NCBI GenBank assembly: GCA_029259175.1
Contig: JAPDJH010000004.1
Span: 62,001 to 126,000 of the forward strand
Origin: Hadesarchaea archaeon
GTDB taxonomy: Archaea; Hadarchaeota; Hadarchaeia; Hadarchaeales; Hadarchaeaceae
Direction of reading: 5' to 3'
DNA length: 64,000 bases
This document shows, one piece after another, positions 2,084 through 23,315 of this stretch (positions are counted from its first letter, which is position 1; every line of letters begins with the position of its first letter). A program made the position numbers and the translations under genes. Below the pieces are notes generated by a model that was given only the letters and a program-made list of their open reading frames with translations, had not been told where the DNA came from and did no database searches.

Positions 2084-2117
2084 AGTGTTTATCCCTCCTA
2101 ACATCGTGCTCTAAAGT

Positions 2118-7708: not shown

Positions 7709-9628
7709 ATGGGTGACAACAAAATTGTCGTTGTTCTCGAACACGAGAATCAGATCCGAGACTTCATCACAAAAAGAAAAACCAAGGGTAGAAAAATATT
7801 CTTGGCGGTCACACCCTTTGCCATGTATGAACTGGAAAAACTTGGGCGTAAACACAAAACACCAGAAGAATATTATGGCATCTCAGAATTGTACCGTCTA
7901 GGGATGAAGAATTATCGCAAAGTCGAAAGCATCTGTAAGATTATAGATAAGGAGATTCATGATGCGTGTCCGGTGCTGGCTCAACTCCACATCAACCCTG
8001 CTTGGTTTTCGTTCGCTGAGCTCAAGATAATATATGACACAGTGGCGATGCGGCTATTCACATTGTTCAAAATTGACCGTGCCGAGAATCCTGATTGCTT
8101 CATAGCATATGACACGAAGCGTTATCCGTTTGGTACCTCACAGTTGGCCCCAGGTTTGCGTTTTGATGGTCGAGAGTCCGTTTGGACACGTCTGCTTTCG
8201 CTTTCCGGGTGGAACTTTTACGTGAAAATACTTCCTCACCTCGAGTGGCCTGCTGGATCTTTTTTACCTAGAAAGGAATCTCTAAGCGTCCGCACCATTC
8301 TTGAAGATATGATGGTAAAAGCGACATTGCCATTCCCTCGCTTATATGATGTAGTCACTGCGGTGCACGAATATGGATGGCACGGTCTTCTTAGAGGTCT
8401 AAAAGACTTGATTCAGGAAAAAGAGAGAGTGTTATTGTTCGGCTCTAGCTGGGATTGGGACAGATGTAGAGAAGAGTTTGAAAAGATAGGGATTAGCCCA
8501 AACTTTTACAGATTGCGGTCTGACCTACAATACTATCTTAACAAACCGAGGGATTCAGGCACGGACAAGGCTCTGCGTTCGACTTGGGAGAAAATAAAGC
8601 AGATGCCTAAATTCCGCCGTTTGTTTATTTTTAAGGGTTTAGACTTCTTTCCGGTTCTTGAAGATAGATTCCAATTTCTAATTGAAAAGTTGCCATATGC
8701 CTGTCTAAACGCTTACAGAAGAACCGAAGAAATATTGAAGCGCAAAAAAGTAAGGGCATTATTGGTTAACACTTTATCCTCATGTACATACCGCTCTGCG
8801 GCCCAAGCGGCCAGAAACAATGATGTGCCAGTCATAGATTGGCAACATGGGGCTTTTGGTTTTTCACCGCATCCGATAATTCACTATACAGATATTGCCG
8901 CATCAGATATTTTCATCACATATGGTGAAGGAGTGGCCAAGCAATTTAGTTCCGTTGCTAAACGATTCAATACAAAAATCGTGCCACTAGGTTCTGCATA
9001 CCTGGCAGAAATAAGGCAACAAGCGATAACGAAAAGCAAAAAATCGCGGTTTGAAAAGGTTGCTTTATATGCCACGACCGCTTATTTTGGCCACACCTTT
9101 TACGTCTCTACCTTTCCACCCTTTGTTGACACCGCATTTTGGAATGTGCAAAAAACCATACTTGCAACGCTGGCTAAAAGTAAAGGGTGGAAAATAATAG
9201 TGAAGCTTCATCCTAGCTATCTTGTGAGACAGTCGCCATTACCACAATACGCGCAAGATAACAATTTTACAAACTGCGTTTTTTTTGGAAGAGAACGGCG
9301 TTTTACCGATTTGATGTTCATCGCAGACGTGATTATCATGGATATTCCACAGACCCCCTTACTCGAAGCATTGACTACCGACGTGCCTGTGTTCGTATAT
9401 ACGGGCTCTCTACATCTCGACAGCTTTGCTGAAAGATTACTTCGTCAAAGAGCATATTGTTATCGAAATCTTAATGCAATGATAAGAGATTTGAGCAAAT
9501 ATCTGGCGGGAGAAAAGTTAAAGAAAAAGGCATCCGTACACAATACACAATTTCTGAAAGCCTATGGTATTGGGCCCTCCTGGAAAAAAATAAAAAAGCT
9601 AGCTGCAGAGATAGTGAAAGCTTCCTAA
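7709..9628 (+). CDS. Large GT-B-like capsule/polysaccharide transferase, family unclear
   Basis: A 639-residue soluble protein. Its C-terminal half resembles capsule-type GT-B enzymes (CDP-glycerol/polysialyl transferase class): DWQHGAFGF, SDIFITYGEG, GWKIIVKLHPSY, and IADVIIMDIPQTPLLEALT followed by VPVFVYTG. The N-terminal 280 residues match nothing I recognise; that part has the motif WDWDRCREEFEKIG. The start is ATG 7709, leaderless by the upstream TATA-like element. It ends the plus-strand arm and overlaps the stop of the convergent fusion gene by 4 nt. Probable role: transfer of a sugar or polyol-phosphate in assembly of the surface polymer. Confidence 0.6.
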   Translation: MGDNKIVVVLEHENQIRDFITKRKTKGRKIFLAVTPFAMYELEKLGRKHKTPEEYYGISELYRLGMKNYRKVESICKIIDKEIHDACPVLAQLHINPAWFSFAELKIIYDTVAMRLFTLFKIDRAENPDCFIAYDTKRYPFGTSQLAPGLRFDGRESVWTRLLSLSGWNFYVKILPHLEWPAGSFLPRKESLSVRTILEDMMVKATLPFPRLYDVVTAVHEYGWHGLLRGLKDLIQEKERVLLFGSSWDWDRCREEFEKIGISPNFYRLRSDLQYYLNKPRDSGTDKALRSTWEKIKQMPKFRRLFIFKGLDFFPVLEDRFQFLIEKLPYACLNAYRRTEEILKRKKVRALLVNTLSSCTYRSAAQAARNNDVPVIDWQHGAFGFSPHPIIHYTDIAASDIFITYGEGVAKQFSSVAKRFNTKIVPLGSAYLAEIRQQAITKSKKSRFEKVALYATTAYFGHTFYVSTFPPFVDTAFWNVQKTILATLAKSKGWKIIVKLHPSYLVRQSPLPQYAQDNNFTNCVFFGRERRFTDLMFIADVIIMDIPQTPLLEALTTDVPVFVYTGSLHLDSFAERLLRQRAYCYRNLNAMIRDLSKYLAGEKLKKKASVHNTQFLKAYGIGPSWKKIKKLAAEIVKAS

Positions 9629-11715
9629 TCTAACATTCTCTTAAAGATCTCCATTTTTACACGTTTGATCTTGGCTTTTTCGTTTGGTCCTATCTTCTCG
9701 AGCAAGCGTCCAGTACCGTCCGCTATTCCTATGACTCTAGTAGGATTAGAGATTGAATCCACAACGACGTCACCTTTTTCACCTACAAGTCCTCCAGCTA
9801 CGACAGGCACACCAGCAATCTTTTTGTATCCGGCGTTTTTCTCTACTACTTCATCGGTTTCCAATACGTTTACTACTTCGCCTGAAAGACCAGCACGCAT
9901 ATCAACTCTATAGATGTTTATATGTTTCCTATGTGCGGCCCTCACGGCATCGGGTGTTATGGATCCTACTGCTGCATCCAAAATTAATGTATTGGGTCTC
10001 AAATTGCGAACTATTTTCTCATTTATTATGGGTTTTCGTAACGCAAAACTGATAAGTATGTCAATTTTGTTACAAATTCGTGGTAAATCAGTAGCAAAAT
10101 TTATAATCCGGGATCCCTCTTTTTTAAGTAAATTTAAGGCTTCAACTCCTCTTTGGAGCTTTTCTTTATCTGGATCCCATAAAATTATTTCACCGCCGCG
10201 CTCAGCCAAATTTAGCGTTAGTTTGAAGCTTAACGAGTTACATCCGCATATTAAGATTTTTTTGCCGTTTATTTCTGTGAGTCGAGACAAAAGAGTTGCA
10301 ACAGCGTTGACCCAAGCATCGGTCTCTTTATATAAAAGTATTTTACTTTTCGTAATCTCTTTTTTCAGGGTTTCATATAATCTAGGCGCTCTGACAATGC
10401 TTTCGGCATCCAATAGAATAAAGTCAACAAATCCATCGGCTGTTCTTGCGACTTCTATGGCCTGTTTTTCAGTGAGAAGCTCGGCGTTTCCAATGATATT
10501 TGTTGCACTTTCACGAACAACCGGAAAAACAGGCGATTTTCTAGGTTTCAATGTAAGAGAAATCGTTAAAACACTCTCCTTATGCTTTTTCTTTGAAAGA
10601 GATTGCAACTCAGAGGCGATCCTTTTAGCTGCAGCCCGAATAGTTGGGATGGAAAAATCTCCCACTTTGAAATATGTTTTTAAATCTTTTTCAGAAAGTT
10701 TTAATGTTCTTAGTTTTTGTTTTTCTTTTTTTAACTCTCTGGCGGCGGACATCGCCAATTCTTCAGACACGTGGACAACATCTTTTTCTGAGACTTTGAT
10801 GATGAGTTCTCTTGGATCTATGCCATACTTTTTTGCTGCTTTATAGACATTTTTCAAAAATTTTGAGTGGAAGAAAGCATACCCAGCGGTGATATCGATA
10901 GGACTCACTCCTTTCTCTCTAAGAAGAGGTCTAATTAACTTTTCGCTTAAATCCATTATTTTATGAATATCAATTCCAAGATCATAACCCATCTTTTTGA
11001 GAATCGTTAATAAAATTTCAGTACAAGCATTGCCACCGCTTCTTCCAATCCCCTGCATAGAACAATCCAGAATAGTTGCACCCACTTCTAAAGCTGCCAA
11101 ACAATTTGCGTGAACTAATGAGAGATTATTATGACCATGAAAGCCTATTCGAACATTGGTAGCTTCTCGGACAGCGTTCACGTATGTTTTCACATCAGAC
11201 GGAAGCATGCCTCCAGCTGAGTCCACGATAGTGACCACATCTGCGCCCCAAGTCTCAGCCATTTTCGCACATTCGGCTAATTTCTTAGGTTTCAGTGCAT
11301 AAGATTTCATTAAGTTTGAAAACACATACATGTCCAATCTTTTAGCATATTTGATGTAAGGTTCAGCACGATGAATTTCTGGAGCGTTCGTACCGATTCT
11401 AACAAAATCCATTCCATAGTCGGAAGCCAATTTTAAATCTCGTTTGCGCCCTATGCCCGGAATAAAGAACATGCCGAATTTGGCTTTTTTGAGAACACTG
11501 GATGCCGCTTCTAAATATTCCTCATCGGTTGCGGCGGCTTTTCCTTCTCCAGCATTAGAAGCGTTTAACCCTAGACCGTGTCCAATTTCAATAAGTCGGA
11601 TGCCTGCTTTTTCCAATCCTGCCACAATAACAGCTGTATCCTCCGCCGTGAACTGAAAATCTATAACATAACTACCGTCTCGCAAAGTACACTCTAGTAA
11701 GTCTAACCTTTTCAT
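9625..11715 (-). CDS. Aldolase (DRE-TIM/MhpE-like) fused to a Rossmann oxidoreductase
   Basis: A 696-residue two-domain protein. Residues 1 to about 340 are a DRE-TIM metallolyase like 4-hydroxy-2-oxovalerate aldolase: ECTLRDGSY, GFHGHNNLSLVHANCLAAL and QGIGRSGGNA carry the metal and catalytic residues. Residues about 390-696 hold a dinucleotide-fold domain with GKKILICGCNSLSF, ILWDPDKEKL, and VAGGLVGEKGDVVVD near the end. The ATG overlaps the upstream aminotransferase stop (ATGA), with GGAGG 7 nt before it. The family joins or splits 2-oxo acids and aldehydes; here it may make or modify a keto-sugar or acyl precursor for the glycan. The exact reaction is unknown. Confidence 0.75.
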   Translation of the reverse strand: MKRLDLLECTLRDGSYVIDFQFTAEDTAVIVAGLEKAGIRLIEIGHGLGLNASNAGEGKAAATDEEYLEAASSVLKKAKFGMFFIPGIGRKRDLKLASDYGMDFVRIGTNAPEIHRAEPYIKYAKRLDMYVFSNLMKSYALKPKKLAECAKMAETWGADVVTIVDSAGGMLPSDVKTYVNAVREATNVRIGFHGHNNLSLVHANCLAALEVGATILDCSMQGIGRSGGNACTEILLTILKKMGYDLGIDIHKIMDLSEKLIRPLLREKGVSPIDITAGYAFFHSKFLKNVYKAAKKYGIDPRELIIKVSEKDVVHVSEELAMSAARELKKEKQKLRTLKLSEKDLKTYFKVGDFSIPTIRAAAKRIASELQSLSKKKHKESVLTISLTLKPRKSPVFPVVRESATNIIGNAELLTEKQAIEVARTADGFVDFILLDAESIVRAPRLYETLKKEITKSKILLYKETDAWVNAVATLLSRLTEINGKKILICGCNSLSFKLTLNLAERGGEIILWDPDKEKLQRGVEALNLLKKEGSRIINFATDLPRICNKIDILISFALRKPIINEKIVRNLRPNTLILDAAVGSITPDAVRAAHRKHINIYRVDMRAGLSGEVVNVLETDEVVEKNAGYKKIAGVPVVAGGLVGEKGDVVVDSISNPTRVIGIADGTGRLLEKIGPNEKAKIKRVKMEIFKRMLD

Positions 11716-12818
11716 TCCATTTCCTCCAAGACGTTTAATAGCACGTTGGCACTTCGGATTATGTATTCCTTTGGAAGCGAAGGATCCACCCAAAGATTAA
11801 TTACATGTTTCCCAAAATATTTTGCTCTAACGAATAATTGAGGATCCTGCTTCCTTCCTGAAAAATACCAACGATGCACAGGAGGATACCAATTGCTTAT
11901 ATGTATGCCTTTCTTCCTAACGCGTTCTGTAACCATGTCCTGATTATTTGTCTTCAAAAGAAAGGTGTATCTCCAAGGAGTCCAATGCCAATGTTTGTAT
12001 TTCGGATGGATTATATGTTTGTGTTTCAAAAGTCTACAATAAGTTTGTGCATATTCTCTTCTTTTCTTAATATAAAATTCCAGCTTCGGGATCTCACGAG
12101 CAATAGCTTTAAGATAAACCCGAGTTACCCTGAAAATGTACATTTTTTTGAAAATTTGGGGCAACGGTAAGAAAAGTCTGTCTAATTCTTCGTTTTCTTT
12201 AGTAAGAGGATACAAGGAGTAATATAATTTTCGGTAGAGTGTTTCTAAAGATTTAAAATTAGTTGGCCGAACTGGAAGTTTTCTAATTTCCTTTTTTATG
12301 TGGTGAGCTAGTGTATTCTCATCTGTAAGCAGAGCGCCGCCGCCGCCACAATCTAGTATTTTCGTGTGGCCAAAACTAAAGATAGAAACTTGACCGAAAG
12401 ATCCAACTTTTTGACCTTTATACTCGCTTCCCATAGCTTGTGCAGCATCTTCTATCACAAACAGATCATTGTTTGATGCTATTTTGAGAAAACGCTCTAT
12501 CTTGGCAGGATATCCGTATAGATGAGGGACAATCATTCCCGCAACATCATCTTCTAACCTGAGTATTTTTTCTACCGATCGGAAACTCATATTGAAGTCG
12601 TTTAAATCTATATCGCAAAAAATAGGTTTATACCCACCATAAAGCACAGAGTTTGGAACACTAGGGCTAATAATAGTTGGAATTATTACTTTTTTGCCCG
12701 AATAACCGTTTTTTGACAATGCTTTTAGAGCAACGTAAATCGCAGCAGTTCCTCGACCAGTCATGAAGCAGAAACGTCTATGAGTATAAGCTTTTAACCA
12801 TTCTTCAACATTTTTCAT
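11712..12818 (-). CDS. DegT/DnrJ/EryC1-family aminotransferase
   Basis: A 368-residue PLP enzyme that would aminate a keto nucleotide sugar. TGRGTAAIYVALKAL binds the phosphate, VIEDAAQAMGSEYKG carries the Asp for the pyridine ring, and SFGHTKILDCGGGGAL has the Schiff-base Lys (about residue 170). It overlaps the deacetylase gene upstream by 4 nt and the aldolase fusion downstream by 4 nt. The same deacetylase-then-DegT pairing recurs at 25515-27628. Confidence 0.85.
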   Translation of the reverse strand: MKNVEEWLKAYTHRRFCFMTGRGTAAIYVALKALSKNGYSGKKVIIPTIISPSVPNSVLYGGYKPIFCDIDLNDFNMSFRSVEKILRLEDDVAGMIVPHLYGYPAKIERFLKIASNNDLFVIEDAAQAMGSEYKGQKVGSFGQVSIFSFGHTKILDCGGGGALLTDENTLAHHIKKEIRKLPVRPTNFKSLETLYRKLYYSLYPLTKENEELDRLFLPLPQIFKKMYIFRVTRVYLKAIAREIPKLEFYIKKRREYAQTYCRLLKHKHIIHPKYKHWHWTPWRYTFLLKTNNQDMVTERVRKKGIHISNWYPPVHRWYFSGRKQDPQLFVRAKYFGKHVINLWVDPSLPKEYIIRSANVLLNVLEEME

Positions 12819-13794: not shown

Positions 13795-14988
13795 CTAATT
13801 TTGGGTTATAAATTTTATTTTTTTCTCAGCCATTTTTGCTATTTTCAATGCATGTTCTCGATTATTTCCAAGGGAGATAATATGTCCAATTCGGTCATCG
13901 CCACACCTCAGTGGTCTTATAATATCTCCTGGTTTTACGTAAATATCAATTTCATAAATCCCACTTATTTTTTTCGCAGAAGCTACACCCACTACTTTTC
14001 TCAATCTCCCGGGTGTATTTTTGAAAAACAACAAAACAGAACCTTTTTTCTTCGTTTTTTTAAGATTGGGTTTTTCCCCAACTGCCAAATTTATAGTAGC
14101 TTCCAAAACATCCACTCCTGTAATATTCGGGATAATATCAGTGAAAACTTTGAAGCCAGCACCTCTAGCACCCAACTCGATTAACATAGGGCCTTTTTCC
14201 GTCATCATCATTTCTATATGTGCTGGACTGTTATCAATGCCAACAGCTTTCGTCGCTTTTTTTGCTACTGTTTCTATTTTTCTTATCCATCTCTCGCTAT
14301 TTTCAAATTTTGATGGAAAACACACCAATGTGTCGACTAGATAAGGCGGCGGTGTTTTTTCCTTATCAGATGTGACTAAAATAATTTTTTTTCGTTTATA
14401 CACAAATTCTTCCACACTAATGGGGCACCCTTCCATAAACTTTTCAACCAGTATTTTTCCACAGCGCGAGTGTTTTTTTGCCCATTTGAACGCAAATTCT
14501 AGTTGTTTCCAATTTTCCACTTTGCTAACCCCTCTCGCTCCAGCATTATCGACTGGTTTCACAACCACCGGGAACCCGAAGTCCCGAATCGTTCTTTTAG
14601 CTTCTTTTAAACTAAACACTGGATGAAAAGCTGGAGAAGGCACGTTAGCTTTTTTGAAACACTTTCGCTGAAGTTCTTTATTGTTTGAGATTTTTGCTAC
14701 CTGTTTCTTTATTCCTACCAGCCCCAATTCTTCTGCAATAGTAGCTACCGTAGGAAGTGCTATCTCGGACGCTATTGTGGTTACCCCATCGATCTTGTAT
14801 TTTTTTGCTATTTTTAAGCAACCTTTTATGTTCTTGATGTCCATACATATGGGCACATCGGCTATTCGAAGGCCGGGTGCATGTGGATTTTTATCTATTG
14901 CTACAATTTTTAGGCCCATTTCTTTTGCTTTCAAAATGCCTGGCAGTTGAAATCGGCCAGCGCCGACAAACATTATCGTTTTGATCAC
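13795..14988 (-). CDS. ATP-grasp ligase of the glycan locus
   Basis: A 397-residue ATP-grasp enzyme of the PurK/CarB-like class. FVGAGRFQLPGI opens a Rossmann-like N-domain. FPVVVKPVDNAGARGVSKV is the ATP-binding glycine-rich loop, and HIEMMMTEKGPMLIELGARG carries the Mg-binding Glu residues. The C-terminal 80 residues look like a separate small domain. The start is GTG 14988, three nt after GGGAGG. Such ligases join a carboxylate to an amine; between a deacetylase and the cytidylyltransferase it could attach an amino acid or other acid to an amino sugar (inference). Confidence 0.75.
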   Translation of the reverse strand: MIKTIMFVGAGRFQLPGILKAKEMGLKIVAIDKNPHAPGLRIADVPICMDIKNIKGCLKIAKKYKIDGVTTIASEIALPTVATIAEELGLVGIKKQVAKISNNKELQRKCFKKANVPSPAFHPVFSLKEAKRTIRDFGFPVVVKPVDNAGARGVSKVENWKQLEFAFKWAKKHSRCGKILVEKFMEGCPISVEEFVYKRKKIILVTSDKEKTPPPYLVDTLVCFPSKFENSERWIRKIETVAKKATKAVGIDNSPAHIEMMMTEKGPMLIELGARGAGFKVFTDIIPNITGVDVLEATINLAVGEKPNLKKTKKKGSVLLFFKNTPGRLRKVVGVASAKKISGIYEIDIYVKPGDIIRPLRCGDDRIGHIISLGNNREHALKIAKMAEKKIKFITQN

Positions 14989-14997
14989 TTTCCTCCC

Positions 14998-15759
14998 TTA
15001 ACGCGTAAGTTTATCACTAAGTAAAGATTTTATATATCCCTCATTCCGGACTATTTGTTTATTTATTTCCAATAAACGAGGATTTTTTTCCAAGAAATTG
15101 AGAATATCATCTAAGTAGAAAATTCCTCCTTCTTTGTATAAACTACGGAACACTTCCGAAACCACGTAAAAATCTCTTTCATCATCTACACATAATCTGA
15201 TATGAGAAAGATCTCTATCGTTCTCTACCGTATATATCCGAAATTTATCAGGGTTTTTCCAAATGTAGGGAGTAACATGTTCCCTTTCTGACGCCCACTT
15301 TGCTTCTCGCCAAGCTTTTTCCAAAGCATTAAACGAAAAGACCTCGGTCTCGACAATTCCATCAGGAAATGTAGGGCCGCTTCTCACATAATCAAATTTG
15401 TCACGATTTTTTAGATAATGTTCAATTATTTTATCCACAAGTTTCGGATCTATTAATGGACAATCGGCAGTTAATCTCACTATTGGATCCACACCAAATT
15501 TTTTTGCAGCTTGATAATATCGATCCAAAACATCTTCTTCGCTTCCTCGAAAGCTATCTAATCCATTAGCTGTTGCAAACTCAACTATAACATCGTCCTC
15601 CTTTTTTTGAGTAGTTGCGATTATTATTTTTTTTATAAACTTGGACCATTTGAGACGATAAATCATATGCCACAACATTGGTTTTCCTAGAATGTTTTTC
15701 ATCACTTTGCCAGGAAGGCGTGTTGACCCCATTCTCGCTTGGATGATTGCGGCCAGCAT
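14998..15759 (-). CDS. spsF: SpsF-like acylneuraminate cytidylyltransferase
   Basis: A 253-residue nucleotidyltransferase. IIQARMGSTRLPGKVMK is the CTP-binding signature of the SpsF/NeuA group, and RLTADCPLIDPKLVD holds the metal-binding Asp residues. These enzymes activate nonulosonic or related keto sugars as CMP derivatives, so this would be the activation step of the nonulosonate pathway (PseF/LegF role). The neighbours are the PseG/SpsG-like protein upstream (3 nt gap) and the ATP-grasp ligase downstream. The sugar activated is not known. Confidence 0.8.
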   Translation of the reverse strand: MLAAIIQARMGSTRLPGKVMKNILGKPMLWHMIYRLKWSKFIKKIIIATTQKKEDDVIVEFATANGLDSFRGSEEDVLDRYYQAAKKFGVDPIVRLTADCPLIDPKLVDKIIEHYLKNRDKFDYVRSGPTFPDGIVETEVFSFNALEKAWREAKWASEREHVTPYIWKNPDKFRIYTVENDRDLSHIRLCVDDERDFYVVSEVFRSLYKEGGIFYLDDILNFLEKNPRLLEINKQIVRNEGYIKSLLSDKLTR

Positions 15760-15762
15760 AAG

Positions 15763-16770
15763 CTAACCCTCCTCCAAATGTTTCACAATTATCTGCTTGA
15801 TTCTCTTTTTGCCAGCGCCATCAATTAATTTTTTCTGTTTCATGCTCATGCTCCGTCTTTTTCCCCGGTCCGATATTACCTCATGCAAAATTTTTAACTT
15901 CCTCTGTAGGGGTAGCACATTTTCCAGCATCACCGCGGCCCCCCGTTCTTCGAATATTTTTCCAAATCTTTTTTCGCGGAAGTTCTGAGGCATGATGATG
16001 GCTGGAGTCCCCAACGCGCAAAACTCTAGTAGTGTGGTCCCCGCACCGCAAAATCCACAGTCTGCTGCAAAAATCAGTCCTCCCAAGTTCTGAACGTGTG
16101 AGTACAAGTTTATGTTTTTGTGCTGATGTTCCAATTCTTTTGTTTTTTTACCAAAAGCTGGCCCAACAACAACATCTATTTCTATATCCTCATTTTTTCC
16201 AAGTTTTGCGAGGAGATCCAAGGCTTCTTTTGTGTGAAAACATGGATCAGCTGAACCGAAAGCTATCAGTATTCTCTCTACTTTTTGCTTAATGGGCTTA
16301 TTTTTTTTAGCGTATTCGATAAACTCATCTCGGATTATGGCGTATTCTAATCCTTCATAATAATTTTTTACCACTTGTTGTGGATTAACAACTTTCAAAT
16401 TTTGGTTAAAAAGATTTATTATCACGTCTAATTGGTGAGAATATCTGAAATAATCTAAACCCACAATCAGGATCTTTCCGACAGCTCTTTTTATCACCCT
16501 CGGATTAAAATCGGGCTTCGGCTGATCTATTACAAGTGCTTTTACCGCATTCTTTTTGATAGCCTCTAATAGACTCTGCTCGATTTTGCCCCGGATTATT
16601 ATGGGAGTACGACCTGCCTTTTCAATCATTTTAACCACCATCGGATGGTCATTGCAACAAAAGCAAACGTTAAAATCTTCAAACTCTCGGGCCAGCTCCA
16701 AAGAGCGAATCACGTGTCCCAATCCTCGTTTTTCATCTCCCGCAACTTTAAACAGGATGCTTGACATCAT
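15763..16770 (-). CDS. pseG: PseG/SpsG-like UDP-sugar hydrolase
   Basis: A 335-residue GT-B-fold protein of the PseG/SpsG family. GDEKRGLGHVIRSLELA near the N-terminus keeps the G-x-G-H loop whose His is catalytic in PseG, AFGSADPCFHT opens the second domain, and FCGAGTTLLEFCALG is the UDP-binding segment. PseG releases UDP from the 2,4-diacetamido sugar before NeuB/PseI-type condensation. Context with NeuB, SpsF and a PseB-like gene supports that role; SpsG proteins of spore-coat loci are the alternative. Confidence 0.75.
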   Translation of the reverse strand: MMSSILFKVAGDEKRGLGHVIRSLELAREFEDFNVCFCCNDHPMVVKMIEKAGRTPIIIRGKIEQSLLEAIKKNAVKALVIDQPKPDFNPRVIKRAVGKILIVGLDYFRYSHQLDVIINLFNQNLKVVNPQQVVKNYYEGLEYAIIRDEFIEYAKKNKPIKQKVERILIAFGSADPCFHTKEALDLLAKLGKNEDIEIDVVVGPAFGKKTKELEHQHKNINLYSHVQNLGGLIFAADCGFCGAGTTLLEFCALGTPAIIMPQNFREKRFGKIFEERGAAVMLENVLPLQRKLKILHEVISDRGKRRSMSMKQKKLIDGAGKKRIKQIIVKHLEEG

Positions 16771-16772
16771 TC

Positions 16773-17777
16773 TCAGCTACGCACCTTTACAAATCTGCCC
16801 AATTTGGCCGATTTCTTAGCCGCAACAACCAACTCTAGGATTTTTTTGCCCTCATGCCCGTCGATTAGGGGTTTTTGTCTTCTACGTATACACTCTATGA
16901 AGTGTCGGAGTTCAGCTAGATACATGTCATTTATTTTGAAGTTGTACTTTGTAATTTTCCAGGGGCCTCCTCGGGAGATGCCCACTAAATTCTTTGAAAA
17001 TTCCCAAAGCAAGTTCCCTTTTTCCCCTGTGGCTTCGATTCTGTTTGTATACACCCTACTCAAGTAATTCAGCTCAATCGTTACCACAGTCCCGCCTCTC
17101 AGCATGAAAATAAAAGTGGCGAGATCTTCTGTGTCTATATCTAAATCGCTGATTTTTACATAATGGCAAGCAACTTTTTCCGCCTCCCCAAATATCCATC
17201 GCATCATATCGAGTGAATGAGTCCCATCGAGCAGGACCCCTCCTCCTAAAGCTCTCCTAGCGCTATACTCTTTGCGGTAGTCTGATCTCGGATGCCAATA
17301 CGGAAGGTAGTATCCCCCCACTATTCGGGCAGAGTAAACCTTACCGATAGCTCCTCTCGTTACTAGTTGCCTTAGCTTAATTATCCCCGGATTAAATCTA
17401 TAACACATGCCAACCATTAGAATTAACTTTTTCTTCTCGACAAGACGCAATAGTGAATCGACGCCTTTTAAATCGGCGGCCAAAGGCTTTTCTACGAAAA
17501 TATCGACGCCTGTCTTTGCTAGTTGTTTGGACATTGATAAATGAAGACTCGTGGGAGTACATACAAATGCTGCTTGCAGAGATGGGTTGTTTGAAATCGC
17601 CTTTTCAAAATCCGTGTACAACTCTCGAATCCCAAATCTTCTAGAAATCTGTTGTAGCCGGTTTTTGTCTTTATCACATGCAACTATATCTCTCATCCCT
17701 AATGCAAACAGGTTTGATATGTGCCGGCTCCCAATCGATCCACAACCAATAACTAAAAATTTCAAAGTCTCCCTCAC
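16773..17777 (-). CDS. Gfo/Idh/MocA-family sugar oxidoreductase
   Basis: A 334-residue NAD(P)-dependent dehydrogenase. FLVIGCGSIGSRHISNL binds the nucleotide, FVEKPLAADLKGVDSLL is the EKP motif carrying the catalytic Lys, and GGVLLDGTHSLDMMRWIFG is the C-domain signature with its His. It starts at GTG 17777, which overlaps the stop of the class III aminotransferase (GTGA). It would oxidise or reduce a sugar hydroxyl or keto group; with the aminotransferase it could convert a hydroxyl to an amine (inference). Confidence 0.82.
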   Translation of the reverse strand: MRETLKFLVIGCGSIGSRHISNLFALGMRDIVACDKDKNRLQQISRRFGIRELYTDFEKAISNNPSLQAAFVCTPTSLHLSMSKQLAKTGVDIFVEKPLAADLKGVDSLLRLVEKKKLILMVGMCYRFNPGIIKLRQLVTRGAIGKVYSARIVGGYYLPYWHPRSDYRKEYSARRALGGGVLLDGTHSLDMMRWIFGEAEKVACHYVKISDLDIDTEDLATFIFMLRGGTVVTIELNYLSRVYTNRIEATGEKGNLLWEFSKNLVGISRGGPWKITKYNFKINDMYLAELRHFIECIRRRQKPLIDGHEGKKILELVVAAKKSAKLGRFVKVRS

Positions 17778-19096
17778 GCGGTGAGTCTTTTAAAACCTTC
17801 TAAAGCTACCGGTCCCTTCAACATGGAGTAAACTTCTTTTTTCTTCATCCCAGCTATTTTTTTAAATACCATTTCAACACTCTTGAAATATTTATTCAAA
17901 TGCGATTTGCGATGGCTATAGGAAACGTAAACCGTTTTGGTCGCTAAAAAACCTTTTTCCAGCATTTCTTGAGTGAAGAAGGTGTAAAGAGCCTGATTTA
18001 GCTCTCCGTAATTGAACTTGAAAGTAGGAACCGAGGGGAGTCCCACTACCTCCAACTCTAATCCACAACTCTCAGCAAGTTCCACCCAACCTCTCTTTAT
18101 TTCCTTGCCCACCTTACAGATATGTCGTGGTACTTGACATTCACTCATCTTGGTAATGGTTGCGATAGCGGCTGCAGGACCCACACGTTCTGTCCAATAC
18201 GTGCTGCTTATGAAACTGTCTTGAGCCACGTCCATAATTTCTCTCTTTCCTATCACTGCAGCCATTGGAAAACCGTTGCTCATCGCTTTGCCAAAAACGG
18301 CAAGATCAGGATACACCCTATAGTACATATGAATGCCGCCCACATTGACGCGCCAACCTGAAGAGACCTCGTCAAAAATGAGAACAGCTCCGATACGATC
18401 AGCTATTTTTCTGACCTTTTGCAAGAATTTGTTCTTAGGCTCTCGTTCTCTTCTGGGCTCCATTACAATAGTTCCGATATCGTTATTATCCACAATTTTT
18501 TCAAGTTCTTCAATTTTGTTGTAACGAAATGGTATCGCGGTTCCTTTCAAAGCCCGCGGAACTCCAAGAGGCTTGAGGCCGGGAAGCAAATGTCCATCTA
18601 AGGCTTTCTCGTCGGCCAAGTTTGCGGCCAGATACCAATCAGACCAACCGTGGTAGCCGCAAAATGCTACTTTATCTTTCCCCGTGCTTGCCCTAGCAAT
18701 CCTCACTGCCACTGCCATGGCTTCACCGCCAGTCCTCGCATATCTCACCATGTCTGCCCAAGGATGAAGTTTTAACAAAAGTTCTGCTAGCTCGACCTCT
18801 TCAGGTGAATTTAGAGTGCACATAGAACCTCCATCTATCACATCCTTGACAGCCCTGTTAACATCGGGATCAGCGTAGCCGAGAATGCATGAACCGACAC
18901 CCATGTAAGACATATCCAAATATTGCTTTCCTTCTAGCGTCCATACCCTAACACCTTTCGCCTTCTTGAAGTATGCTGGCCACAATTTTGGCAAAAAATG
19001 TTCAGAACGTTTTGAGAGCATCTGGGTTCCCCCGGGGATTATCTTTTTTGCTTTTTCCCAAAGTTTTGCCCCAACATTTTTGGATTCGCTCGCCAT
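17774..19096 (-). CDS. Class III aminotransferase (glutamate-1-semialdehyde-mutase-like)
   Basis: A 440-residue PLP enzyme. KKIIPGGTQMLSKR opens like HemL, RTGGEAMAVAVRIARA binds the phosphate, LIFDEVSSGWRV carries the pyridine Asp, and FGKAMSNGFPMAAVIG holds the Schiff-base Lys. It lies between NeuB and the Gfo/Idh/MocA enzyme, far from any haem genes, so a role on a sugar or keto acid of the glycan pathway is more likely than tetrapyrrole synthesis. The start ATG has GGTGA a few nt upstream. Confidence 0.8.
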   Translation of the reverse strand: MASESKNVGAKLWEKAKKIIPGGTQMLSKRSEHFLPKLWPAYFKKAKGVRVWTLEGKQYLDMSYMGVGSCILGYADPDVNRAVKDVIDGGSMCTLNSPEEVELAELLLKLHPWADMVRYARTGGEAMAVAVRIARASTGKDKVAFCGYHGWSDWYLAANLADEKALDGHLLPGLKPLGVPRALKGTAIPFRYNKIEELEKIVDNNDIGTIVMEPRREREPKNKFLQKVRKIADRIGAVLIFDEVSSGWRVNVGGIHMYYRVYPDLAVFGKAMSNGFPMAAVIGKREIMDVAQDSFISSTYWTERVGPAAAIATITKMSECQVPRHICKVGKEIKRGWVELAESCGLELEVVGLPSVPTFKFNYGELNQALYTFFTQEMLEKGFLATKTVYVSYSHRKSHLNKYFKSVEMVFKKIAGMKKKEVYSMLKGPVALEGFKRLTA

Positions 19097-19100
19097 CTGC

Positions 19101-20150
19101 TCACCCTATTTTATCCCACGTTATCGGCTCATATCTTTTGATATTTTTCTTCGCTCTTTTTCCAATTACTTTGTGTAAATACTTCGGCTCCAGCCCAAGT
19201 GCAGGTCTTAAAATTGTTAGCATTTCCTTTTTCAAAACGGTTCCGGCCGGAATATCCGTTGCCGCGAATATACTTCTTCTCCCAAGAAATCTTCCTTCTT
19301 TTTCGCCTTCAAGAACTTCTTTAATACCTCGACCACGCATCTTCTCTACTTCACGAATGCTATTTACCATTTTCATAAGCTCTCGAGGTTCCAAAGCAAA
19401 AAAATGATCTGGCCCCCTCAGCTTACGACTAATCGTGAAATGTTTTTCTATCATTACTGCACCCAACGCTACTGCAGCAATTGAGGCTTCTATCCCCAGA
19501 GTATGATCTGAAAACCCTACCGGCAACCGAAATTTCTTCTCAAGTGTTTTCATTACTAAAAGGTTGACATTCTCAGGAGGGGTTGGATACATAGACACAC
19601 AGTGCAATAAGATTACATCTTTATTCCCCGTCTTTTTTATTGTATTCACCGCCTCTCGGACTTCTTGTAGGGTTGATACGCCGGTGGAAACTATCATAGG
19701 TTTTCCCTTGCGAGCCATGTATCTAATCAGCGGAAGATTTGTCAAATCTCCCGAAGCCACTTTAAAGGCCGGAACTCCAATCTCGTCTAAAAGATCTACC
19801 GCCTCTTCATCGAAAGGGGATGACAGAAAAATTAGTCCGCGCTTCTCTGCATATTCTGCGAGTATCCGGTGCCATCGGCGAGGAAGTTCCACGCGCTTAA
19901 AACTCTCATACATGGCGGCGCATCTGGCAGGTGTTTCTTCATCTCCGGTTCCCGGAACTAACCTTGCTACCAACTTGTCAGCGCTAAAAGTTTGAAACTT
20001 TATGGCATCGGCACCCGCTTTTGCTGCAATATCTATTAGGCGCTTGGCCTGCTCCAATTTTCGATCATGATTGGAACCTGCCTCAGCGATTATAAAAACG
20101 GGTTCACCATTGCCCACGAACCTCTCGCCTATTTTTATTTTTTTAGTCAT
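19101..20150 (-). CDS. neuB: NeuB/PseI-family nonulosonate synthase
   Basis: A 349-residue synthase that condenses phosphoenolpyruvate with a 6-carbon amino sugar to make a 9-carbon acid. PVFIIAEAGSNHD, AIKFQTF, KVASGDLTN, GFSDHTLG and MIEKHFTI are the TIM-barrel signatures. The C-terminal SAF (antifreeze-like) domain is seen in GRRSIFAATDIPAG. ATG 20150 is chosen because GGTGA lies 5 nt upstream; a GTG three codons earlier is in frame. The start overlaps the PseC-like gene by 8 nt. Sialic, legionaminic and pseudaminic types cannot be told apart here. Confidence 0.9.
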   Translation of the reverse strand: MTKKIKIGERFVGNGEPVFIIAEAGSNHDRKLEQAKRLIDIAAKAGADAIKFQTFSADKLVARLVPGTGDEETPARCAAMYESFKRVELPRRWHRILAEYAEKRGLIFLSSPFDEEAVDLLDEIGVPAFKVASGDLTNLPLIRYMARKGKPMIVSTGVSTLQEVREAVNTIKKTGNKDVILLHCVSMYPTPPENVNLLVMKTLEKKFRLPVGFSDHTLGIEASIAAVALGAVMIEKHFTISRKLRGPDHFFALEPRELMKMVNSIREVEKMRGRGIKEVLEGEKEGRFLGRRSIFAATDIPAGTVLKKEMLTILRPALGLEPKYLHKVIGKRAKKNIKRYEPITWDKIG

Positions 20151-21291
20151 GAAGTTCACCTATTGTCTCTTTAACTATATCTACTACTCTATTCACATCT
20201 CTCTTTGTCATTCGCGGGAACAAGGGAAGAGTAAGCACCCTTTTAGCGATGTCCTTGGTAACCGGAAGATCTCCTGATTTGAAGCCACGTTTCTTGTAAA
20301 ACGTGAATGTGTATACTGGAGGATAATGAACGGTTGCTCCTATTCCTTTAGACCTTAATGTAGAAACAAACCCGTTTCGATCAATCATAGGATCTAATAA
20401 CACTGTATAGAGGTGCCAGGCGTGTTTAACATTCGGTTTTTCAACAGGCAGGGTAAGCATCGGTGTTCCTTGAAGTTTTTTTGTATAGGTCTCCGCCAAT
20501 TCCCTTCTTTTTCTCAAGAATTTGTCCAGCTTTCGTAGCTGGGAAACTCCCAACGCTGCTTGAAAATCGGTCATCCGATAATTCCTACCCAAAAGCCGCA
20601 CATCATAAGACCAAGAATGACGGCTATCGAATCTTTCCAAGGCACTTCGATCTATCCCGTGATTCCTTAGAATCCTCATCCTATCAGCCAATCTCTTATC
20701 ATTAGTCACACACATACCCCCCTCGCCCGTTGTTACGTGCTTCACTGGGTGAAAACTGAATATTGTTATATCCGCGAAGCTTCCTACTTTTTTTCCTCTA
20801 TACTCGGCTCCGAGTGCATGGGCGGCATCTTCAATTAAGTACAAGTCATGTTCTTCTGCTATCTCTTTTATCTCTGCGATATCGCACGGATGGCCGGCGA
20901 AATCTACGTAAAGTATCGCTCTTGTTTTGGCAGTTATTTTTTTTCTTATGTCGTCTGGATCGATATTATAAGTATCCTTCTGGATATCAGCAAATACTGG
21001 CTTCAAATTGTTGAAAAGAATGGCGTTAACTGTTGCCACGAAAGTGAAAGGTGTGGTTATCACCTCAGCTTTTTTTAGTCCAAGGGACGCAATGGCAATG
21101 TCGAGTGCACTTGTCCCGGAATTTACTGCGATCCCGTATTTACAATTTACATATTTACACACTGCTTCTTCAAACTCTTCTACCTTACGGCCCATCACTA
21201 TCCAATCACTTTTCAGGACACTCACTACTTGGTCAATGTCCTCCCTATCGATCCAATGTAGCCCGTAGGGGAGAAAATAACGTGGTGCCAT
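20143..21291 (-). CDS. PseC/DegT-type nucleotide-sugar aminotransferase
   Basis: A 382-residue PLP aminotransferase. VNSGTSALDIAIASLG binds phosphate, LIEDAAHALGAEYRG has the ring Asp, and FSFHPVKHVTTGEGGM holds the Schiff-base Lys. This sequence style matches PseC/LegC and related enzymes that aminate C4 of UDP-4-keto-6-deoxy-GlcNAc. With the PseB-like dehydratase downstream in this locus it supplies the expected second step. ATG 21291 has GGTGA about 6 nt upstream. Confidence 0.85.
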   Translation of the reverse strand: MAPRYFLPYGLHWIDREDIDQVVSVLKSDWIVMGRKVEEFEEAVCKYVNCKYGIAVNSGTSALDIAIASLGLKKAEVITTPFTFVATVNAILFNNLKPVFADIQKDTYNIDPDDIRKKITAKTRAILYVDFAGHPCDIAEIKEIAEEHDLYLIEDAAHALGAEYRGKKVGSFADITIFSFHPVKHVTTGEGGMCVTNDKRLADRMRILRNHGIDRSALERFDSRHSWSYDVRLLGRNYRMTDFQAALGVSQLRKLDKFLRKRRELAETYTKKLQGTPMLTLPVEKPNVKHAWHLYTVLLDPMIDRNGFVSTLRSKGIGATVHYPPVYTFTFYKKRGFKSGDLPVTKDIAKRVLTLPLFPRMTKRDVNRVVDIVKETIGELHD

Positions 21292-21297
21292 ACGTAT

Positions 21298-22377
21298 TCA
21301 CCTGATTATTCGCTTAGCAAATTCATTCACGCGGCTCTTCATAATTCTGAGGAAGTATTCTCGGTTCCAGAACTTTTCTCCCCGGAACATCGGATAGACC
21401 TTTCCTCCAAACCCTGATTTGAAAAAAGTAATGTTTTTCTCTTTCTCAGAAGGCATATCATATAGCAGATCACCAAACTGCTGAAGTCCTACTTCGAAAA
21501 ATTCGCAACCCTTTCTTTTTAACCACATCATCGTCTCCCACAAAAGCAAAGAAGAGATTGGAACATCTGCATGTTCAGGATCATTTGCGCTTGAACCATA
21601 ATAGCACGCGTTCTTATAATAAAACATATACCCAAACCCAACATACTCGTCTTTTCGTCTTGCAGCGGATAGAAAACCGTGACCCTGTTTTATCCATTCG
21701 TACCACATCTCGAAGGTTACCAAGGGCCGAGTAATTCTTCCTGCAGCTTTGTGGTGCAACTTCCTATATTTTTCATAAATTTCTTTTGTTATCTTGTCCT
21801 TGTCAAAAACCTCAAAGGTGAGTTCGCGCTTAGCTTTTTTTACATTCCACCTATTGCCTTTTCGCATATCATTCCAAAGGTTATTTTTCCTCAAATCGAT
21901 TATGCGCGTGTTCAAAGAACAATCGTTAAATCCGTATTTCATTAATATATTAAAAGTAGGAAATTCTCCACGAAGCGATATAGGTATGAGAGGTGTTAAG
22001 TAGACAAGCGAGTATGCCACGTCTTCTTCTCTTGCTATTTCATCAAATATGGCGAAAATATAGCCGAGAATTTTTTCCCTTTCCTTTTCCGAAATGTTGC
22101 TTTTTAGTGCAGGAAAAAGAATTGGCCCCTCCGCCATTCTAAATACCTTATATGTTTTATTTTCTATCTCGTGATTCTCGACAAATAGTGGAACTACTGC
22201 TATTATCTCTCGGTTGCGCTTAAGAAAGAAACTCTGTGACTCTGTTTTCAAATGCGGCTTATAATGAACGCAGTATTCTATCCAATTAGAGGTATGCCAA
22301 AACCATGCATAATCACTTTGGAAACAGAATTCATCCCATTCTGGACGATTGGCCTTTTTCAAGTACTCAATATCCAT
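21298..22377 (-). CDS. FemAB/GNAT-like acyltransferase
   Basis: A 359-residue protein with a double GNAT/FemAB layout. EWDEFCFQSDYAWFWHTSNW resembles the entry of the Acetyltransf_6 family, RKGNRWNVKKAKRE is the basic helix seen in FemAB-like proteins, and the segment YVGFGYMFYYKNACYYGSSA is the GNAT core of the second half. It may N-acylate the amino sugar (a PseH/LegH role) or attach an amino acid. ATG 22377 is chosen: GGTGA lies 5 nt before it, while an earlier start at 22407 would overlap the next gene by 25 nt. Confidence 0.65.
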   Translation of the reverse strand: MDIEYLKKANRPEWDEFCFQSDYAWFWHTSNWIEYCVHYKPHLKTESQSFFLKRNREIIAVVPLFVENHEIENKTYKVFRMAEGPILFPALKSNISEKEREKILGYIFAIFDEIAREEDVAYSLVYLTPLIPISLRGEFPTFNILMKYGFNDCSLNTRIIDLRKNNLWNDMRKGNRWNVKKAKRELTFEVFDKDKITKEIYEKYRKLHHKAAGRITRPLVTFEMWYEWIKQGHGFLSAARRKDEYVGFGYMFYYKNACYYGSSANDPEHADVPISSLLLWETMMWLKRKGCEFFEVGLQQFGDLLYDMPSEKEKNITFFKSGFGGKVYPMFRGEKFWNREYFLRIMKSRVNEFAKRIIR

Positions 22378-22382
22378 GGGTT

Positions 22383-23315
22383 TCACCCGGTTATAGATTT
22401 CATCCATTCAGTTGTTTTTTTTATTCCTTGGTTCAAATCTGTCTTGGGTCTCCAACCCAACAACTTCTTAGCTTTAGAATAATCACATACCAATTTTCTT
22501 ATTTCTGCTTGTGGATGCGGATGACGCACATGCCGAATCCTCTTCTTATCCCTACATATGAGAAATGCCAACCGATTGATAGAAATGTCCTGCCCTGTTC
22601 CAGCGTTGATCACCTCCCCCACCGCTTTTTTGTTAGACATAGCTCTGAACAAAAAGTCGGCACAGTCTTCCACATAAAGCAAATCTCTCGTTTGCTTCCC
22701 GTCGCCAAAAACCGTGATAGGTTTCCCCTCCAGTTTCTCCCGTATAAATATACTTACAACGCCTCCTTCCGCATCACTTCTTTGATACGGTCCATAGGTG
22801 TTGAATGGTCTCGTAACTACCACCGGCAACCCATACGTTCTGAAATAGGAAAGAACCAGCTCTTCTCCGGCGAGCTTCGAGCTAGCATAGGGGGACTTCG
22901 GTTTTAACGGATGGGTTTCGCTTATTGCTGCTTTTTTGGCACTATCATAAACCATGCACGTGCTAACAAAAACTAATTTGGTGTCGTGTCTTCTGCACAT
23001 CTCTAACAGATTGTACGTCCCTACAATGTTAATCTGAAATGTCTCTCTAGGATTGTCAATCGACTTTTGAACATTTATTTGGGCTGCGAGATGAATACAC
23101 ACTTTTATGCCTTTGAAAATCCTTGCGAGTTTTTTTGAATTCAAAATATCCGCTTTAACAAACGAGAACTTCTTGTTGTCAGAAAATTCCAAAATATTTT
23201 TTGGACTTCCGCTGCTTAAGTTATCGTATGCTATTACTTCATGCCCTCGAGATAGAAGTTCCTTTACCACCCATCTTCCGATAAATCCAGCACCGCCAGT
23301 AACCAAAATTTTCAA
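22383..23315 (-). CDS. GalE-like NAD-dependent sugar epimerase
   Basis: A 310-residue extended SDR. KILVTGGAGFIGRWVV binds NAD, VSTCMVYDSA and YASSKLAGEEL give the active site with Tyr-x-x-x-Lys, and RPFNTYGPYQRS is the substrate loop. The start is TTG 23315, supported by GGAGGGG 5 nt upstream and a TTGA overlap with the dehydratase stop. It is similar in style to the gene at 29520. The nucleotide sugar it epimerises is not known; UDP-GlcNAc or UDP-Glc are usual. Confidence 0.83.
   Translation of the reverse strand: MKILVTGGAGFIGRWVVKELLSRGHEVIAYDNLSSGSPKNILEFSDNKKFSFVKADILNSKKLARIFKGIKVCIHLAAQINVQKSIDNPRETFQINIVGTYNLLEMCRRHDTKLVFVSTCMVYDSAKKAAISETHPLKPKSPYASSKLAGEELVLSYFRTYGLPVVVTRPFNTYGPYQRSDAEGGVVSIFIREKLEGKPITVFGDGKQTRDLLYVEDCADFLFRAMSNKKAVGEVINAGTGQDISINRLAFLICRDKKRIRHVRHPHPQAEIRKLVCDYSKAKKLLGWRPKTDLNQGIKKTTEWMKSITG

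What the first reader, a model, noticed from the sequence alone, without database searches (positions are those of the whole stretch)
9625..11715. Aldolase fused to a Rossmann dehydrogenase inside a nonulosonate-type glycan locus
A complete DRE-TIM aldolase (metal and catalytic motifs intact) is joined in one frame to a dinucleotide-binding domain of about 300 residues whose substrate I cannot name. Stand-alone MhpE-like aldolases normally pair with acylating aldehyde dehydrogenases in catabolism; here the fusion is coupled by a 4-nt overlap to a DegT aminotransferase and lies among sugar genes. This suggests a step that builds or trims a keto-sugar or acyl group and directly passes the product to the second domain.
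Basis: partly seen in the sequence, partly recalled or inferred. Interest (0 to 1): 0.75.

Follow-up and report, generated by a model that had tools for sequence, protein, structure and literature searches.

The report
Swapped-dyad glycan aldolase with unknown domain
An archaeal sugar-coat gene cluster encodes a two-part enzyme: an aldolase whose two key active-site residues are swapped relative to its well-known degradative cousins, fused to an uncharacterised enzyme-like domain; related proteins sit in surface-glycan gene clusters of many bacteria and some archaea, where they probably build an unusual acid that is hung on surface sugars.

Summary
The fusion is real: window 9625-11715, minus strand, 696 aa, with an ATGA overlap to the upstream DegT gene. 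The aldolase half is not an ordinary DmpG/MhpE. It belongs to a clade (support 100) in which the catalytic dyad is reciprocally swapped (DmpG His21/Tyr291 become Tyr16/His283) in 76 of 76 rows, the pocket is remodelled (F83, N134, R225), and the DmpF partner is absent (0 of 75 loci, against 5 of 5 catabolic loci). Seventy-one of 75 loci carry glycan markers. They hold either an ATP-grasp ligase (32) or an AMP ligase (30), never both: two ways to activate a carboxylic acid. The second domain is a family absent from Pfam and NCBIfam, with a two-domain dehydrogenase fold. GxGxxG is absent in all 22 aldolase-linked members; 3 of 3 NeuB-linked members keep it. A separate Asp/Arg/Gly-rich block is nearly invariant. 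Best reading: the cassette builds a polar hydroxy-oxo acid from a pyruvate-like donor, processes it, and ligates it to an amino group on a surface sugar. Substrate and second-domain chemistry are unproven.

The parts
9625..11715 (-). fusion protein, 696 aa: aldolase + second (C-) domain
   Evidence: ATGA overlap with upstream gene
10711..11715 (-). residues 1-335: HMGL/DmpG-type metal aldolase of the Tyr/His-dyad clade (Y16, H283; metal D13, H193, H195; F83, N134, R225)
10726..10899 (-). residues 273-330: DmpG communication domain (PF07836)
   Evidence: 33.7 bits, cut-off 27
9628..10710 (-). residues 336-696: linker plus C-domain, two-domain-dehydrogenase-like fold, family without Pfam or NCBIfam entry; loop GCNSLS in place of GxGxxG; conserved D436, Y462, D580, R603, GG641-642, D653, GxADGxG 663-669
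11712..12818 (-). DegT-type PLP enzyme, 4-nt overlap with the fusion; homologue fused to ATP-grasp in L082
12815..13789 (-). polysaccharide-deacetylase-like hydrolase (CE4-type), 4-nt overlap with the DegT gene
   Evidence: (TIGR03006 2.1e-5, below its cut-off)
13795..14988 (-). ATP-grasp ligase with LAL_C2 domain
14998..15759 (-). cytidylyltransferase (CMP-nonulosonate synthetase type)
15763..16770 (-). PseG-like hydrolase
   Evidence: 112 bits, below equivalog cut-off 153.6
16773..17777 (-). Gfo/Idh/MocA oxidoreductase
17774..19096 (-). class III aminotransferase (PRK06209-like)
19101..20159 (-). NeuB/PseI nonulosonate synthase
   Evidence: PseI 351 bits, cut-off 340
20143..21291 (-). PseC aminotransferase
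   Evidence: 447 bits, cut-off 423.5
21298..22407 (-). GNAT-like acyltransferase
22383..24352 (-). two NDP-sugar dehydratase/epimerase genes (22383-23315, 23312-24352)

Best explanation
The fusion is the carbon-carbon-bond-forming step of a surface-glycan decorating cassette. SHOWN by sequence: the first half is a metal-dependent pyruvate-type aldolase of a glycan-dedicated clade with a reciprocal His/Tyr-to-Tyr/His swap of the catalytic dyad, a remodelled, more polar pocket and no DmpF partner. The second half is an uncharacterised two-domain-dehydrogenase-like family found fused to the aldolase, split beside it, or beside NeuB. The genes just upstream (DegT, CE4-like hydrolase, ATP-grasp) recur with such aldolases. 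INFERRED: the aldolase joins a pyruvate-like donor to a polar aldehyde to give a 4-hydroxy-2-oxo acid. The C-domain converts this product in the next step; an unfavourable aldol equilibrium would be a reason to tether it. The DegT enzyme and the hydrolase supply or expose an amine. ATP-grasp joins the acid to that amine as an amide on a nonulosonate or related amino sugar. In sister cassettes an AMP ligase replaces ATP-grasp. The chemistry of the C-domain is the weakest step: reduction of the 2-oxo group is the likeliest single guess (about 0.35), but the cofactor loop is altered.
For: Dyad swap in 76 of 76 clade rows and in no His-type row; 20 of the 76 were not selected for the Tyr. Clade-specific pocket residues. 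Clade support 100. In BphI the Tyr290 position sets C4 stereochemistry and Leu87/89 aldehyde fit (PMC3962088, passages). DmpF beside 5 of 5 catabolic loci and 0 of 75 here. ATP-grasp 32, AMP ligase 30, both 0, neither 13 of 75 (Fisher p 5e-11); amidohydrolase 14 and deacetylase 6, all 20 with ATP-grasp, never together. Fused, split and NeuB-linked C-domain. ATP-grasp fused to DegT in L082. Nearly invariant polar residues outside the nucleotide loop: D101, R268, D318 and D331 of the domain in 24-25 of 25. Precedent: Shewanella sfmABCDE (NeuB, TPP enzyme, reductase, methyltransferase, ATP-grasp) is needed for a flagellin nonulosonate with one N-acetyl carrying a 236-Da C9H16O7 moiety (PMC3765264, abstract, passages and Discussion).
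Against: No substrate, product or glycan structure is known to me for any member. DmpG-type specificity for pyruvate is assumed, not tested. Forty-eight of 75 loci lack a detectable C-domain, so it is not needed in every version. Only 31 of 75 loci show NeuB within about 8 kb, so the acceptor need not be a nonulosonate. The 75 loci are among the best 80 of 210 and are not independent (12 are close acidobacterial relatives, 11 or 12 of them with the AMP ligase). The cofactor loop is altered, which speaks against reduction by the C-domain. Amide formation in the sfm case is my inference, not the paper's finding.
Confidence: 0.5

Rival explanations
1. The aldolase makes, cleaves or epimerises the ulosonic-acid backbone itself (a 2-oxo-3-deoxy-4-hydroxy acid), as an alternative or adjunct to NeuB, and the C-domain acts on that 2-oxo sugar acid.
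For: Both NeuB and a pyruvate aldolase yield 4-hydroxy-2-oxo acids (established chemistry). The intact C-domain sits directly beside a 791-795-aa NeuB protein with no Tyr/His aldolase in Omnitrophota: G526 and G532 have no aldolase hit at 1e-15, G721 only a 28% hit in a 537-aa frame. Forty-four of 75 aldolase loci have no NeuB nearby.
Against: The acid-activating ligases go with the aldolase rather than with NeuB, and 31 of 75 loci have both NeuB and the aldolase, which would be redundant.
Confidence: 0.2
2. The C-domain is a real NAD(P)H reductase of the aldolase's 2-oxo acid (2-hydroxyacid-dehydrogenase-like), with an unusual loop.
For: Fold matches to DpaA, PHGDH and SAHH. Relatives in Omnitrophota have GxGxxG and clear NAD(P) Pfam hits. 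P0001 keeps an acidic residue after strand 2 (WDPD). The sfm operon has a predicted reductase among its genes.
Against: GxGxxG in 0 of 22 aldolase-linked members; the second Gly is Asn, Asp, Pro, Ser or Gln in 17 of 22, Gly in 4, and L154 lacks the segment.
Confidence: 0.35
3. The C-domain is a non-catalytic scaffold or regulatory pseudoenzyme that replaces DmpF on the communication domain.
For: Altered cofactor loop; communication domain retained; C-domain not detected in 48 of 75 loci.
Against: A separate block of Asp, Arg and Gly residues is nearly invariant, more than a scaffold needs. Stand-alone versions exist beside NeuB.
Confidence: 0.2
4. An ordinary catabolic 4-hydroxy-2-oxovalerate aldolase that landed by chance among sugar genes.
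For: Passes the TIGR03217 cut-off (302 against 286 bits).
Against: Separate clade, swapped dyad, no DmpF, overlapping genes with the glycan cassette, same context in many phyla.
Confidence: 0.03

Closest known systems
DmpG / BphI / MhpE 4-hydroxy-2-oxovalerate aldolase (PDB 1nvm)
   Same: Fold, metal-binding Asp/His/His, catalytic Arg, communication domain; passes TIGR03217; closest solved structure (E 2e-57)
   Different: Catalytic His/Tyr swapped to Tyr/His; pocket F83, N134, K137, Y139, R225; no DmpF partner; glycan context; fused C-domain
Dipicolinate synthase subunit A (2rir, 3d4o), with PHGDH, SAHH, FolD
   Same: Rossmann domain of the C-domain (3d4o Z 17.8, rmsd 5.0 over 151 residues; profile hit to 2rir 2e-6)
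   Different: Altered nucleotide loop; own N- and C-terminal conserved blocks; no family-level sequence match; biological role different
Shewanella oneidensis sfmABCDE flagellin modification (PMC3765264)
   Same: ATP-grasp plus C-C-bond-forming enzymes (NeuB, TPP type), predicted reductase and methyltransferase; extra C9H16O7 moiety on a mono-acetyl nonulosonate
   Different: No Tyr/His aldolase or C-domain reported; sequences not compared here
3dxi-type putative aldolase
   Same: HMGL fold; Gly-Gly-Tyr after RD in related rows, e.g. viral L076, L078
   Different: P0001 is far closer to DmpG (E 2e-57) than to 3dxi (2e-23); 3dxi function unknown

Membership tests
4-hydroxy-2-oxovalerate aldolase (DmpG/MhpE, TIGR03217) | HMM score over curated cut-off | tested here: met
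   302.2 against 286 bits
4-hydroxy-2-oxovalerate aldolase (DmpG/MhpE, TIGR03217) | Metal and Arg residues R17, D18, H200, H202 | tested here: met
   R12, D13, H193, H195
4-hydroxy-2-oxovalerate aldolase (DmpG/MhpE, TIGR03217) | Catalytic His21 with Tyr291 (role of His21 recalled; Tyr290 of BphI read in PMC3962088) | tested here: not met
   Y16 and H283; 76 of 76 clade rows
4-hydroxy-2-oxovalerate aldolase (DmpG/MhpE, TIGR03217) | Acylating aldehyde dehydrogenase DmpF as partner gene | tested here: not met
   0 of 75 loci (5 of 5 catabolic); in the window only a weak 32% hit 50 kb away
4-hydroxy-2-oxovalerate aldolase (DmpG/MhpE, TIGR03217) | Cleaves 4-hydroxy-2-oxopentanoate | not testable with these tools
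   needs an assay
NAD(P)-dependent two-domain dehydrogenase (C-domain) | Rossmann domain in a two-domain dehydrogenase arrangement | tested here: met
NAD(P)-dependent two-domain dehydrogenase (C-domain) | GxGxxG/A nucleotide-binding loop | tested here: not met
   GCNSLS in the window; 0 of 22 aldolase-linked members GxGxxG (1 of 22 GxGxxA); 3 of 3 NeuB-linked members have it
NAD(P)-dependent two-domain dehydrogenase (C-domain) | Binds NAD(P) and does hydride transfer | not testable with these tools
   needs binding and activity assays
Nonulosonate (NeuB) glycan locus | NeuB, PseC, cytidylyltransferase and dehydratase in one run of genes | tested here: met

The most novel reading that the evidence does not exclude
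A widespread, undescribed surface-glycan pathway of Bacteria and Archaea, built round a new aldolase clade with a reciprocally swapped catalytic dyad and a new enzyme family (the C-domain) derived from NAD(P) dehydrogenases but working by another, cofactor-altered chemistry, makes a previously unseen acid substituent and loads it by two interchangeable ligase modules.
Probability: 0.4. Interest if true: 0.75.

Novelty: new variant of a known kind. Interest (0 to 1): 0.6.

Why it matters
By the curated TIGR03217 cut-off this protein would be named a catabolic 4-hydroxy-2-oxovalerate aldolase; it belongs to a distinct, glycan-dedicated clade, so relatives are probably misannotated too. The reciprocal dyad swap is a clean natural experiment on aldolase catalysis and stereocontrol that can be tested with two point mutations. 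The cassette logic (one aldolase, two exclusive acid-activating modules, interchangeable hydrolases) predicts undiscovered acid substituents on microbial surface sugars, and the C-domain is a new family with a defined fold and candidate active-site residues.

Tried and rejected
Ordinary DmpG in a catabolic pathway: rejected. C-domain as DmpF (acylating aldehyde dehydrogenase): not supported, since DmpF does not appear among the top fold matches listed (a listing only, not an exclusion). c13, a 320-340-aa neighbour found mostly in Firmicutes, was tested as a remote C-domain and rejected (hhalign probability 1.8%); by eye it looks like a PLP enzyme. The 300-aa C-terminal parts of the acidobacterial fusions do align to the C-domain (probability 94%, E 1.7e-7, 11 sequences) but the alignment stops before the conserved last block, so I count them apart. 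A rigid docking of the two halves could not be shown (pTM 0.53). The last lobe of the C-domain (about domain residues 290-361) was barely covered by the fold comparison, so its fold is untested. Plasmid and viral collections gave no C-domain relative; phage records gave one DmpG hit only. Paper searches naming such an aldolase, or an ATP-grasp ligase, with nonulosonate, O-antigen, flagellin or glycan terms listed no paper that describes this aldolase clade; most subscription journals are not held. PMC6254364 was searched for the relevant terms and held none. Co-occurrence counts were first made with greedy gene picking, which fails in GC-rich contigs; (all frames) replaces it.
Full report
What is there. 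The window lies in an archaeal genome: 1.3 Mb in 23 contigs, with an eIF-6 gene, which in the control set rings only in four archaea. On the minus strand a run of genes from about 27.6 kb down to 9.6 kb encodes a nonulosonate-type glycan locus: dehydratase/epimerase genes, a GNAT-like acyltransferase, PseC, NeuB, a class III aminotransferase, a Gfo/Idh/MocA oxidoreductase, a PseG-like hydrolase, a cytidylyltransferase, then ATP-grasp, a CE4-like deacetylase, a DegT-type PLP enzyme and last the fusion. The last four genes are tightly packed: a 5-nt gap and two 4-nt overlaps. The fusion is 696 aa.

The aldolase half. By profile it is a 4-hydroxy-2-oxovalerate aldolase (TIGR03217, 302 bits; DmpG_comm above cut-off), and its nearest solved structure is DmpG, 1nvm (E 2e-57). 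A scan of one genome per species, with patterns from the N-terminus and the metal site, found 291 candidate stretches and 210 relatives; the best 80 loci (L081-L160) were kept. I aligned 75 aldolase rows from 74 of these loci that carry the new dyad, the window protein, and 12 comparison rows (DmpG, 5 catabolic loci, 6 viral or archaeal DmpG-like proteins). All 76 rows of the new kind have Tyr where DmpG has His21 and His where DmpG has Tyr291. The 11 comparison rows with a visible N-terminus keep His21, with Tyr, Phe, Val or Met at 291. Selection does not explain this: 20 of the 76 do not carry the Tyr-containing search pattern. Other clade-specific changes are L88F (75 of 76), F139N, M142K and A232R (76 of 76 each) and H144Y (74 of 76). 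In BphI, the DmpG orthologue, Tyr290 governs C4 stereochemistry and Leu87/Leu89 the fit of the aldehyde (PMC3962088, passages); by my alignment logic these are the DmpG positions numbered one higher. A quick maximum-likelihood tree puts all 76 rows in one clade with support 100, apart from DmpG and the viral forms. Fused members lie near its base and are scattered, so I cannot tell one ancestral fusion with losses from several fusions.

Partner and context. DmpF-like acylating aldehyde dehydrogenases lie beside 5 of 5 catabolic loci and in 62 of 73 viral loci, but in 0 of 75 loci of the new clade. The 75 are all 80 kept loci minus the 5 catabolic ones; one of them, L159, is cut at its N-terminus, so its Tyr was not seen. 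Counting homologues in all reading frames of the 75 loci: DegT 43, ATP-grasp 32, NeuB 31, AMP ligase 30, PF04199 cyclase 27, amidohydrolase 14, CE4-like deacetylase 6; at least one marker in 71, none in L084, L091, L119 and L146. None of these markers was seen in the 5 catabolic loci. ATP-grasp and AMP ligase never co-occur (32, 30, both 0, neither 13; Fisher p 5e-11). All 20 loci with amidohydrolase or deacetylase have ATP-grasp, and these two hydrolases never co-occur. The cyclase occurs only with the AMP ligase (27 of 30). The p-values ignore relatedness, and 12 of the AMP loci belong to the diverged acidobacterial and planctomycete group of 13. Both ligase types activate carboxylic acids (established for the families), so the cassettes look like two versions of 'make an acid, load it'. 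In L082 the DegT homologue is fused to ATP-grasp (743 aa).

The second domain. It has no significant match in Pfam, and NCBIfam matched only the aldolase half in the best 25 rows shown. Fourteen relatives lie in L081-L160: nine fused (L081-L087, L131, L154) and five as a separate gene directly after the aldolase (L088, L142, L147, L150, L159). Thirteen more loci (12 acidobacterial, one planctomycete) encode a diverged C-terminal part; an alignment of 11 of these matches the domain with hhalign probability 94%. An AlphaFold2 model from 15 sequences is confident (pLDDT 88.4, pTM 0.80). Foldseek and VIA-align place residues of about 55-289 with two-domain dehydrogenases: dipicolinate synthase A (Z 17.8, rmsd 5.0, 151 aligned), PHGDH (Z 15.9, rmsd 2.3, 131) and SAHH (Z 15.8, rmsd 2.4, 138). 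A profile search agrees (2rir, 2e-6). The cofactor loop is not GxGxxG: 0 of 22 aldolase-linked members have it, one has GxGxxA, and L154 lacks the segment (one of the eight further Hydrogenedentota loci, L177, did not match my regular expression and was left out; three of the seven used are cut at a contig end, so their aldolase N-terminus was not seen). Three Omnitrophota members (L167-L169) have GxGxxG; two of them were scanned and match NAD(P)-domain models. All three sit directly beside a 791-795-aa NeuB protein, which in L167, the one scanned, is a FAD amine-oxidase-like domain fused to NeuB; two of those three genomes have no aldolase hit and the third only a 28% one. Outside the loop, D101, Y127, D245, R268, G306-G307, D318, P323 and G328-x-A-D-G-x-G334 (domain numbering; add 335 for the fusion) are kept in 23-25 of 25. 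So the family seems to descend from NAD(P) enzymes, the aldolase-linked branch has changed the loop, and a separate conserved site suggests that it is still an enzyme.

Spread. The domain is patchy, as island genes are: 1 of 28 genomes of the window's phylum, no second full-length hit among 394 genomes of the same domain of life, 2 of 108 in the order of a Flavobacteriales hit, 4 of 285 in the Omnitrophota phylum, 1 of 371 in the phylum of the Woesearchaeota hit, 10 of 68 in the Hydrogenedentota phylum. Each count includes its seed genome or genomes.

How it most likely works. Shown: anatomy, clade, context, fold. Inferred: pyruvate-like donor plus a polar aldehyde gives a 4-hydroxy-2-oxo acid; the tethered domain converts it; ATP-grasp joins the acid to an amine that the DegT enzyme or the deacetylase provides. 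The closest experimental precedent that I read is Shewanella sfmABCDE, where NeuB, a TPP enzyme, a predicted reductase, a methyltransferase and an ATP-grasp protein are needed for normal modification of flagellin, which carries a nonulosonate with a single N-acetyl and a further C9H16O7 moiety (PMC3765264: abstract, passages, Discussion). That paper does not show an amide; I infer it. I put 0.5 on the acid-building reading, 0.2 on backbone chemistry, and leave the C-domain reaction open with reduction as the leading guess.

Novelty. The aldolase is a new variant of a known kind; the C-domain is, as far as these searches show, an undescribed family of a known fold. The paper searches listed nothing describing either.

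Noticed in passing
L007-L079 (IMG/VR contigs): 73 viral-contig loci encode DmpG-like relatives, mostly of the His type, 62 with a DmpF-like gene in the locus: a phage-borne aldolase/dehydrogenase pair whose role is unclear.
   Followed up: partly
L167:9446-11821, L168:5673-8060, L169:1455-3842: Omnitrophota NeuB proteins of about 795 aa; in L167 the extra part is a FAD amine-oxidase/UDP-galactopyranose-mutase-like domain; the other two were not scanned.
   Followed up: partly
window 1256-2104 (-) and 6678-7634 (+): Two similar-looking genes without Pfam match when scanned, both with a 'LIILDACRYD' motif near the start; they look like paralogues flanking the rhamnose-type sugar genes.
   Followed up: no
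window 7709-9628 (+): 639-aa gene convergent with the fusion, no Pfam match, distant similarity (22%) to a gene next but one to the C-domain gene in L167.
   Followed up: no
L093:10474-11115 and similar (clusters c41, c53): About 206-213-aa family without Pfam match between the AMP ligase and the cyclase in the sister cassettes.
   Followed up: no
L082:11403-13634: ATP-grasp ligase fused to a DegT-type PLP domain, 743 aa.
   Followed up: yes
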